Part shown: piece after piece, positions 1 to 46,605 of the stretch | Numbering within the stretch: the stretch's first letter is position 1 | Layout: every line of letters starts with the position of its first letter | Source: Clostridiales bacterium | Lineage (GTDB): Bacteria; Bacillota; DSM-16504; Desulfitibacterales; JAICDB01 | Reading direction: 5' to 3' | Assembly: GCA_020063565.1 (NCBI GenBank) | Contig: JAICDB010000008.1 | Span: 103,914-167,913 of the forward strand | Length of the DNA: 64,000 nucleotides | Notes under the pieces: model-generated | The model's input: only the letters and a program-made list of their open reading frames with translations | Told to the model about the DNA's origin: nothing | Databases searched by the model: none | Translations under genes and position numbers: made by a program

Positions 1-129
1 CCGGCGATGCTCAAATTAGAAACTATGATGTTGAAATAGTATGGTAGAATATTTTTGAGTAATTTTTTTAAAAAGAAGGCAGGAATTATCATAATTTATA
101 GAGAATACTATATGTGAAAAGTAAAAATT

Positions 130-378
130 AAACCTGAGGCACCCGTAAAAGGGTTTAATAGGGAAATCGGTGAAAATCCGATGCGGTCCCGCCACTGTGA
201 TTGGGGAGCGCCTTGCATTATCCCACTGCCCGGCACTTAATCCGGTATTAACTTTAAGTTTAATCGCTACTAACATCCACGGATGAAAGTATTGAGTAAA
301 CTAATAAGTTGTATTGGATTAAGTGCTGGGTGGGAAGGGGCAAGGCTTGCTGTGAACCAGAGCCAGGAGACCTACCTT
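130..378 (+). ncRNA. Cobalamin riboswitch (copy 1, apparently orphan)
   Basis: Adenosylcobalamin-class aptamer. The B12-box-like core GCGGTCCCGCCACTGTGA lies at about 184-201, the upstream GAGGCACCC and AATAGGGAA segments at about 136-165, and the conserved 3' segment AGCCAGGAGACCT at 361-373. The peripheral arm is enlarged by a 102-nt insert (229-330). A two-state expression platform follows: TTGGGGGTT near 377 can pair with AACCCCCAA near 422, or the latter can form a terminator with GGTTGTGGGGTT. No B12-related gene follows; the next gene is ilvN with its own promoter, behind a second terminator. Aptamer identity is firm, its target is unknown. Confidence 0.88.
229..330. repeat. Invertible-looking 102-nt hairpin insert, orientation A
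   Basis: Fifteen-bp inverted arms (229-243 and 316-330, one G-U wobble) enclose 72 nt (244-315). The 72 nt are the exact reverse complement of 46443-46514 inside the second cobalamin riboswitch, 72 of 72 by eye, while the riboswitch sequence outside the arms runs in the same direction in both copies. The segment sits in a peripheral arm, not in the conserved core. Confidence 0.92.
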
Positions 379-421
379 GGGGGTTTAGTCTACGGTAGAT
401 AGACATATAATCTTGTAAACT

Positions 422-39782: not shown

Positions 39783-39804
39783 AAATCGACTCGTTGTGAG
39801 TCGA
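39783..39804 (-). terminator. Terminator of Cys-rich microprotein pair
   Basis: On the minus strand, TCGACTCA/TGAGTCGA-type hairpin (CGACTC-ACAAC-GAGTCG) followed by eight T. Confidence 0.8.
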
Positions 39805-39942
39805 TCATTTAGCCTTAAACTCGCTGCAGCAGGGAGATAGGAATTTTTTCTCCGATTTAGCCATACAAAATTGCTTCCTATGGAGATACCAGTAGCAGGA
39901 GAGACACTGACATTTTAAGTTTTTGGTACAATACCGCCACAC
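39805..39942 (-). CDS. Cys-rich microprotein B (45 aa)
   Basis: Short gene with GTG start (39942) 10 nt after AAGGAG, TGA at 39805-39807. The core KCQCLSCYWYLHRKQFCMAK (10-29) and the end PCCSEFKAK are closely shared with microprotein A, 41 nt upstream on the same strand. Six of its seven cysteines line up (CxC..C, C, CC). No family is recognised. The spaced Cys pattern suggests metal binding, for example zinc, or a redox role. It looks like a tandem duplicate with its own ribosome site. Confidence 0.65.
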   Translation of the reverse strand: MWRYCTKNLKCQCLSCYWYLHRKQFCMAKSEKKFLSPCCSEFKAK

Positions 39943-39983
39943 AACTCGATCTCTCCTTAAAATTTTTTATGACCTCCTAAAAA

Positions 39984-40112
39984 TTATTTTGGCTTATACT
40001 CGTCGCAACAGCTGCTGTTCAGTGCATGCTTTTCAAACTTAGCCATGCAAAACTCTTTTCGGAGAAGGTACCAATAACAAGAATGACACTGACATCTTAA
40101 TTTTTTAGTCAT
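39984..40112 (-). CDS. Cys-rich microprotein A (42 aa)
   Basis: ATG 40112 with AAGGGGG 8 nt upstream; TAA at 39984. The product has C7, C9 and C12 (CQCHSC), C22, and C35, C36, is basic, and contains YWYLLRKEFCMAKFEKHA (13-30). The paralogue downstream keeps every one of these cysteines and the YWYL.RK.FCMAK core, so the frame is under selection rather than chance. A strong promoter (TTGACG-17-TACAAT) lies 95 nt upstream. Function unknown. Confidence 0.7.
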   Translation of the reverse strand: MTKKLRCQCHSCYWYLLRKEFCMAKFEKHALNSSCCDEYKPK

Positions 40113-40241: not shown

Positions 40242-40316
40242 TATAGTTTGAATATTTAGTAATTTTAAAACACTTTTGTTATTATAAGCACTACTTATGA
40301 ATAGGGAATTAAATAA

Positions 40317-40352
40317 AAAAAGCATGAAACCTTTTTGAGTTCCATGCTTTTT
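40317..40352 (-). terminator. Terminator of tRNA operon
   Basis: Minus-strand AAAGCATGGAACTC...GGTTTCATGCTTT hairpin followed by T tract, immediately after tRNA-Val. Confidence 0.8.
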
Positions 40353-40428
40353 TGGTGGGCGGTACAAGGCTCGAACTTGTGACCCCCTGCTTGTAAGGCA
40401 GGTGCTCTCCCAACTGAGCTAACCACCC
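40353..40428 (-). tRNA. tRNA-Val (TAC)
   Basis: 76 nt including encoded CCA. Acceptor GGGTGGT/ACCGCCC, anticodon loop CTTACAA, GTTCGAGCC T-arm, normal D-arm. Last gene of the tRNA operon. Confidence 0.93.
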
Positions 40429-40460
40429 CTAATCGAAGTTCGATGTGTGATGTTCGAAAT

Positions 40461-40528
40461 GCGATATCTATCTCGAGATTACCTCTTGAATTTTTTCGCA
40501 CCTCGGATCTCGAACTTCTCATATCGCA
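40461..40528. repeat. 68-bp intergenic repeat, copy 1
   Basis: Begins GCGATATC and ends ATATCGCA, giving 7-8 bp terminal inverted repeats. Identical to 40593-40660 except one base (T/C). It fills the gap between tRNA-Val and tRNA-Glu. Confidence 0.9.
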
Positions 40529-40530
40529 AA

Positions 40531-40594
40531 TGGTGACCCGTAGGGGATTCGAACCCCTGTTACCGGCGTGAAAGGCCGGTGTCTTAGACCCCGC
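40531..40594 (-). pseudogene. tRNA-Glu (TTC), 5' end missing
   Basis: The 3' part is intact: CCA, acceptor strand ACGGGTC, T-arm GGTTCGAATCC, anticodon stem-loop with CTTTCAC (TTC). The first roughly 14 nt (expected acceptor strand GACCCGT and 5' D-stem) are absent. The sequence passes instead straight into the 68-bp repeat at GCGGGGTCTAAGAC, sharing GCG with the repeat end. The RNA could not form an acceptor stem. Either a real disruption or an assembly collapse across the repeat. Confidence 0.8.
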
Positions 40595-40660
40595 GATATC
40601 TATCTCGAGATTACCTCTTGAATTTTTTCGCACCTCGGACCTCGAACTTCTCATATCGCA
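40593..40660. repeat. 68-bp intergenic repeat, copy 2 (abuts broken tRNA-Glu)
   Basis: Same sequence and orientation as copy 1 with one mismatch. Its left end replaces the 5' end of tRNA-Glu; its right end is next to tRNA-Lys. Confidence 0.9.
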
Positions 40661-40661
40661 G

Positions 40662-40737
40662 TGGTGAGCCATCCAGGATTCGAACCTGGGACACCCTGAT
40701 TAAAAGTCAGGTGCTCTGCCGACTGAGCTAATGGCCC
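40662..40737 (-). tRNA. tRNA-Lys (TTT)
   Basis: 76 nt with CCA. Acceptor GGGCCAT/ATGGCTC, D-arm GCTCAGTCGGCAGAGC, anticodon loop CTTTTAA, GGTTCGAATCC. Confidence 0.95.
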
Positions 40738-40742
40738 ATAAC

Positions 40743-40819
40743 TGGCAGGGGTGGCAGGATTTGAACCCACGACACGCGGATTTGGAGTCCGCTGCTCTAC
40801 CAGACTGAGCTACACCCCT
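40743..40819 (-). tRNA. tRNA-Trp (CCA)
   Basis: 77 nt with CCA tail. Acceptor AGGGGTG/CACCCCT, anticodon loop CTCCAAA, T-loop GGTTCAAATCC. First gene of the tRNA operon. Confidence 0.95.
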
Positions 40820-40859: not shown

Positions 40860-40888
40860 ATACTAACATGTGTCTATTAATTTGTCAA
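40860..40888 (-). promoter_or_regulatory. Promoter of tRNA operon
   Basis: Minus strand TTGACA (40888-40883), 17 bp, TAGTAT (40865-40860), about 40 nt before tRNA-Trp. Confidence 0.75.
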
Positions 40889-46304: not shown

Positions 46305-46327
46305 ACTTATAAGATTAATATGAGTAA

Positions 46328-46578
46328 CTGCTATAGGTGCCCTTGTATAAGGGAGAATAGGGAATCGGGTGAGAATCCCGAGCGGTCCCGCCACTGTGAT
46401 TGGGGAGCGCCTTGCATTATGCCACTGCCCAGCACTTAATCCAATACAACTTATTAGTTTACTCAATACTTTCATCCGTGGATGTTAGTAGCGATTAAAC
46501 TTAAAGTTAATACCGGATTAAGTGCTGGGTGGGAAGGGGCAAGGAATGCTGTGAACCGGAGCCAGGAGACCTGCCTAT
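46328..46578 (+). ncRNA. Cobalamin riboswitch (copy 2) upstream of alpha-ribazole salvage genes
   Basis: Same aptamer as copy 1: TAGGTGCCC, GAATAGGGAA, GCGGTCCCGCCACTGTGA and GAGCCAGGAGACCTGCC are all present, with a perfect TCGGGTGAGAATCCCGA hairpin. The peripheral arm holds the same 102-nt insert, reversed. The downstream terminator (46606) and a competing CATGAA/TTCATG hairpin (about 46592-46614) form the expression platform. It is predicted to switch off cblS, the ECF S-component and the A/T genes when B12 is sufficient. Confidence 0.93.
46428..46529. repeat. Invertible-looking 102-nt hairpin insert, orientation B
   Basis: Perfect 15-bp arms (46428-46442, 46515-46529) bound 72 nt (46443-46514) that are the exact reverse complement of 244-315. 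Flanking riboswitch sequence is in the same orientation in both copies. Confidence 0.92.
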
Positions 46579-46605
46579 AGCATTGGGAAGCCATGAATGA
46601 TGGTA

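What the first reader, a model, noticed from the sequence alone, without database searches (positions are those of the whole stretch)
40461..40660. tRNA-Glu cut by one of two identical 68-bp repeats
Two direct copies of a 68-bp element with GCGATAT/ATATCGC ends flank tRNA-Glu(TTC). The second copy replaces the first roughly 14 nt of the tRNA, joining at a shared GCG. The RNA cannot form an acceptor stem. If this is the only tRNA-Glu it should be lethal, so either another copy exists, the repeat is mobile, or the assembly collapsed.
Basis: partly seen in the sequence, partly recalled or inferred. Interest (0 to 1): 0.66.

Follow-up and report, generated by a model that had tools for sequence, protein, structure and literature searches.

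The report
Broken spare tRNA-Glu beside duplicated spacer
One of three tRNA-Glu gene copies in this uncultured bacterium has lost its first 14 bases because a copy of a neighbouring hairpin spacer sits in their place; two intact copies elsewhere make the loss harmless, so the case is largely ordinary, although the hairpin spacers belong to a recurring and apparently undescribed type.

Summary
Two 68-bp direct copies (67/68 identical, ends GCGATAT/ATATCGC) flank a tRNA-Glu(TTC) remnant that lacks exactly its first 14 nt (GGCCCGTTGGTCAA). ARAGORN does not call it. The shared-GCG junction is wrong: intact copies read ...GGTCAA|GGGGTC, here ...GATATCGC|GGGGTC. Lethality is ruled out: the genome (2.36-Mb draft, 80.8% complete) has two intact tRNA-Glu(TTC) genes, both identical to the remnant over all 62 remaining nt, so the break is recent. 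The remnant is the third gene of a promoter-Trp-Lys-psiGlu-Val-terminator operon on the minus strand. The repeat is not a dispersed mobile element: only these two copies exist, plus a 21-nt stub in the paralogous Glu-Val spacer. It is the 5' arm and loop of a tRNA-spacer hairpin built of degenerate heptads. Four other tRNA spacers of the genome share the design, with compensatory changes. Similar heptads directly follow tRNA CCA ends in 15 other genomes of 11 families. Best reading: a recent local rearrangement (template switch or slippage) put a second copy of the Glu-Val spacer arm over the Lys-Glu spacer and the tRNA 5' end, giving a pseudogene. Assembly error cannot be excluded without reads, but is unlikely.

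The parts
40860..40888 (-). promoter-like site TTGACA-17-TAGTAT upstream of tRNA-Trp
   Evidence: consensus scan only
40743..40819 (-). tRNA-Trp(CCA), first gene of the operon; the only Trp gene found among the tRNA loci scanned with ARAGORN
40662..40737 (-). tRNA-Lys(TTT); 3 substitutions against the Lys gene at C3:185654
40593..40660 (-). 68-bp repeat, copy 2: 5' arm and loop of a heptad spacer hairpin, without the 3' arm; it occupies the Lys-Glu spacer and the place of the first 14 nt of tRNA-Glu
40531..40592 (-). tRNA-Glu(TTC) remnant (pseudogene), nt 15-76, identical to the same part of both intact copies
40461..40528 (-). 68-bp repeat, copy 1: 5' arm and loop of the Glu-Val spacer hairpin
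40430..40530 (-). whole Glu-Val spacer (about 101 nt), long hairpin; its 3' arm lies at 40435-40459
   Evidence: I2; RNA z = -3.0
40353..40428 (-). tRNA-Val(TAC)
40316..40353 (-). intrinsic terminator-like hairpin with T run just after tRNA-Val

Best explanation
A redundant tRNA-Glu gene inside the operon Trp-Lys-Glu-Val was recently inactivated by a local DNA rearrangement at the hairpin spacers between the tRNA genes. The 68-bp repeat is the 5' arm plus loop of the Glu-Val spacer, a long stem-loop of degenerate heptads. A second copy of it now lies between Lys and Glu and replaces the old spacer and the first 14 nt of tRNA-Glu. Most likely replication switched template or slipped at the hairpin. 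The remnant has no 5' acceptor strand and no 5' D-arm strand, so it should not be matured; Trp, Lys and Val from the same transcript should be unaffected. Shown: the anatomy, the intact copies, the identity, the hairpin design. Inferred: transcription of the operon, the replication mechanism, the fate of the RNA.
For: 62 of 62 nt identical to two intact tRNA-Glu(TTC) genes, with exactly 14 nt missing. The identical stretch with the C23 Glu-Val locus is 84 nt and runs into the repeat, and the right flank (AACATCACACATCGAACTTCGATTA, then Val) is shared too, so the repeat belongs to the Glu-Val spacer. The two repeats are 99% alike, whereas the other spacers of the genome are at most 81% identical to S1 and do not match this repeat beyond a 21-nt stub, so one was copied from the other recently. 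Copy 2 lacks the 3' arm that copy 1 has. The spacers S1-S5 share one hairpin: 86.7% of cells paired against 25-48% in slid controls, 5 pairs with two-sided change against 1 in each slid control. Only two repeat copies in the genome.
Against: No close relative with the unbroken operon is held, so the ancestral Lys-Glu spacer here is not seen; the nearest relatives are of the same order, and the one read has short plain spacers. No clear microhomology at the right junction (GATATCGC|GGGGTC). No reads were available. The covariation rests on five sequences, and the count of pairs with two-sided change is reached by 28 of 500 shuffles.
Confidence: 0.6

Rival explanations
1. Simple deletion: the Lys-Glu spacer was already a near-identical hairpin of this type, and one deletion removed its 3' arm plus the first 14 nt of tRNA-Glu, ending at the foot of the hairpin.
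For: Copy 2 alone still folds with GCGATAT/ATATCGC at its foot, and the deletion would start exactly there. Only one event is needed if the two spacers were alike before.
Against: Two spacers 99% alike would themselves need a recent copying event; the other spacers of this genome are far less alike.
Confidence: 0.17
2. Assembly, consensus or library artefact: the true DNA has an intact tRNA-Glu.
For: The genome is an 80.8% complete draft in 29 contigs. The region holds a 68-bp repeat and an 84-nt stretch identical to another locus. Hairpins are hard templates for polymerases (general knowledge). The remnant shows no decay.
Against: The join GATATCGC|GGGGTC has no shared sequence on which an assembler could merge paths, and it is not a natural repeat boundary: the two intact copies are identical over all 76 nt, first 14 included.
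Confidence: 0.15
3. The 68-bp unit is a MITE-like mobile element that inserted and destroyed the gene.
For: Inverted ends TGCGATAT/ATATCGC(A) coincide with the limits of the repeat. Two partial matches to Y1 (REP-type) transposases exist in the genome.
Against: No other copies in 2.36 Mb and none in viral contigs. No target-site duplication beyond a possible TT at copy 1 and none at copy 2; 14 nt were lost. The hairpin's 3' arm lies outside the unit, and the inverted ends fit the heptad frame (TTTGCGA, GGTGCGA / TCGCATT), so they need no transposon.
Confidence: 0.06
4. A 3' tRNA fragment left by an integrative element (att duplication).
For: The fragment keeps the 3' end and CCA, as such scars do (general knowledge).
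Against: It lies inside a compact tRNA operon with tRNA-Lys 69 nt upstream and no element between. The intact copy on the same contig is 41 kb away in opposite orientation. Homology runs on through the spacer into tRNA-Val.
Confidence: 0.02

Closest known systems
Bacterial tRNA pseudogenes and truncated tRNA genes in multi-copy isoacceptor families
   Same: A redundant copy lost an essential end while intact copies remain.
   Different: The missing end is covered by a copy of the neighbouring spacer hairpin.
Heptanucleotide-repeat stem-loop (P6b) of the Nostoc tRNA-Leu(UAA) intron, PMC4476775
   Same: A stem built of degenerate 7-nt repeats that keep complementarity; whole repeat regions are replaced and 7- and 14-nt units gained or lost.
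   Different: There inside a group I intron of a cyanobacterium (motifs TDNGATT, NNTGAGT); here between tRNA genes of Bacillota-type genomes, with a motif close to GRAGTYNGA.
Stem-loop sequence families of bacterial genomes (ERIC and others), PMC2267715
   Same: Repeated intergenic stem-loops.
   Different: That survey removed tRNA- and rRNA-linked clusters; this repeat is in two copies in one operon and is not dispersed.

Membership tests
tRNA pseudogene (non-functional duplicate) | cannot form the cloverleaf | tested here: met
   No acceptor stem or D-arm in the fold; not called by ARAGORN; partial Rfam match, positions 9-63
tRNA pseudogene (non-functional duplicate) | intact isoacceptor elsewhere in the genome | tested here: met
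   C23:128697 and C3:185855
tRNA pseudogene (non-functional duplicate) | no mature tRNA made from it | not testable with these tools
   needs RNA
MITE / REP-like mobile element | several dispersed copies | tested here: not met
   Two copies in one operon and a 21-nt stub in the paralogous spacer only
MITE / REP-like mobile element | terminal inverted repeats | tested here: met
   TGCGATAT/ATATCGC(A); also explained by the heptad frame
MITE / REP-like mobile element | target-site duplication | tested here: not met
   Flanks C / GG at copy 2; at most TT at copy 1
heptad tRNA-spacer hairpin (defined here) | starts within about 14 nt of a tRNA CCA, runs of 7-nt units, pairs with a downstream arm | tested here: met
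   Own spacers S1-S5; post-CCA matches in other genomes. Copy 2 lacks the downstream arm

The most novel reading that the evidence does not exclude
Long stem-loops of degenerate heptads between tRNA genes are a recurrent, undescribed class of spacer in Bacillota-type genomes, perhaps a double-strand RNase substrate that separates pre-tRNAs, and they act as hot spots that rearrange tRNA operons, here destroying a tRNA-Glu gene.
Probability: 0.3. Interest if true: 0.5.

Novelty: new member of a known kind. Interest (0 to 1): 0.3.

Why it matters
For the finding itself, little: it explains an apparent lethal defect as loss of a spare gene and warns that tRNA counts from drafts can include broken copies. 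The wider point is the spacer type. Heptad hairpins directly behind tRNA 3' ends recur across at least 11 families besides this one, and the literature searched here does not describe them; if they guide pre-tRNA processing or drive operon rearrangement, both can be tested.

Tried and rejected
Lethality: rejected, two intact tRNA-Glu genes. Displaced or trans-spliced 5' half: rejected, the 14-nt piece is absent from the window and present only in the intact genes. The repeat lending an acceptor strand: no pairing in the fold. Mobile element: see rivals. Related organism with the same locus: search by the neighbouring MFS transporter gave 17 loci, and the nearest ones (71%, 68%, 64%) have no tRNA genes nearby. 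Taxon name: not obtained; the genome lies in an order of which only three other genomes are held, and the held class is no larger. The large frame 40295-40672 across the tRNA region is spurious, as it runs through tRNA genes. Paper searches for heptads between tRNA genes, including six literal motifs, found nothing in Bacillota.

Full report
Observation. The two 68-bp copies are at 40461-40528 and 40593-40660 with one mismatch. On the minus strand, in the direction of the genes, the order is tRNA-Trp, tRNA-Lys, repeat copy 2, tRNA-Glu remnant, repeat copy 1, tRNA-Val. A promoter-like site precedes Trp and an intrinsic terminator-like hairpin follows Val, so this reads as one operon. Its tRNA-Trp is the only one found in the tRNA loci scanned, which argues that the operon is expressed (inference).

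The break. The remnant equals nt 15-76 of both intact tRNA-Glu(TTC) genes of the genome, 62 of 62; the missing part is GGCCCGTTGGTCAA. Those genes lie at C23:128697 (Asn-Met-Glu-Val) and C3:185855 (Lys-Glu-Asp-Phe). The missing 14 bases occur nowhere else. The remnant folds without an acceptor stem or D-arm. Zero changes in 62 nt, while the Lys gene next to it has three or more changes against its paralogues and Val one, mean that the loss is recent or that the segment was recently copied.

What the repeat is. The Glu-Val spacer of the window is a stem-loop of about 101 nt (RNA z = -3.0): its 5' arm and loop are repeat copy 1, its 3' arm lies outside the repeat at 40435-40459. The paralogous Glu-Val spacer in C23 keeps the first 21 nt and the 3' arm and lacks the middle. 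Four more spacers of this genome, after Lys (twice), Met and Glu, are stem-loops of 117-125 nt (z = -4.1 to -7.4). All five align in a heptad frame. One consensus hairpin has 86.7% of cells paired (slid controls 25-48%) and five pairs with changes on both sides (slid controls 1); against shuffles the covariation score is reached 4 times in 500 and the count of such pairs 28 times. With five sequences this is good but not overwhelming support. As single-stranded DNA the repeat alone is only weakly structured (z = -1.8 and -0.5), so a DNA-hairpin mechanism is plausible, not shown.

Distribution. A pattern for two heptads within 14 nt after CACCA matched 24 of 398 genomes of the phylum; the reversed control matched in one. 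Of 27 matches outside the window's genome, 18 directly follow a tRNA called by ARAGORN, in 15 genomes of 11 families, 16 of them with another tRNA within 500 nt downstream. Runs of three heptads lie only in tRNA spacers in the window's genome (2 of 2), but in other genomes also away from tRNA genes (12 of 32 sites checked are near one), so the type is not exclusive to tRNA operons. The order-level relative read here has short, plain spacers at Met-Glu-Val.

Mechanism. Copy 2 has the repeat without its 3' arm, flush against nt 15 of tRNA-Glu. Since the two copies are 99% alike and the other spacers are not, one copy was made from the other not long ago. The single difference is G in copy 2 and in the C23 stub, A in copy 1, so copy 2 keeps the older base. 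A template switch or slippage event at the spacer hairpin explains the copy and the loss together; simple deletion from an older twin spacer is the main biological rival. A mobile element is disfavoured by the lack of other copies, an integration scar by synteny and orientation. An assembly error is possible in a draft genome, but the join has no shared sequence on which to merge.

Comparison. The nearest described design is the heptanucleotide stem-loop of the Nostoc trnL intron (PMC4476775); it works alike in that degenerate 7-nt repeats keep a stem while units and whole regions are replaced, but it is not the same family. No description of heptad hairpins between bacterial tRNA genes was found in the library searched, which does not hold most subscription journals.

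Noticed in passing
L116-L119, L121-L124, L126, L129-L131, L133-L137, L139: Heptad repeats directly behind tRNA CCA ends, mostly as long stem-loops before the next tRNA, often at Met-Glu, Lys-Glu and Val-Asp junctions, in 15 genomes of 11 families.
   Followed up: partly
window 39787-40112 (-): Two tandem small Cys-rich frames (MTKKLRCQCHSCYWY... and TKNLKCQCLSCYWY...), about 73% alike in DNA; the second lacks the ATG start. No Pfam match for the first.
   Followed up: partly
L011 and L012 (G000:C8:1 and G000:C12:1): Two contigs begin with tRNA-Asn at the same position (23-94) and with the same score, probably contig ends in a repeated operon.
   Followed up: no
window 120-393 and 46318-46592 (+): Two cobalamin riboswitches.
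   Followed up: no
window 40662-40737 (-): tRNA-Lys of this operon differs at three or more positions from both other Lys genes, one change turning an acceptor A-U pair into G-U.
   Followed up: no
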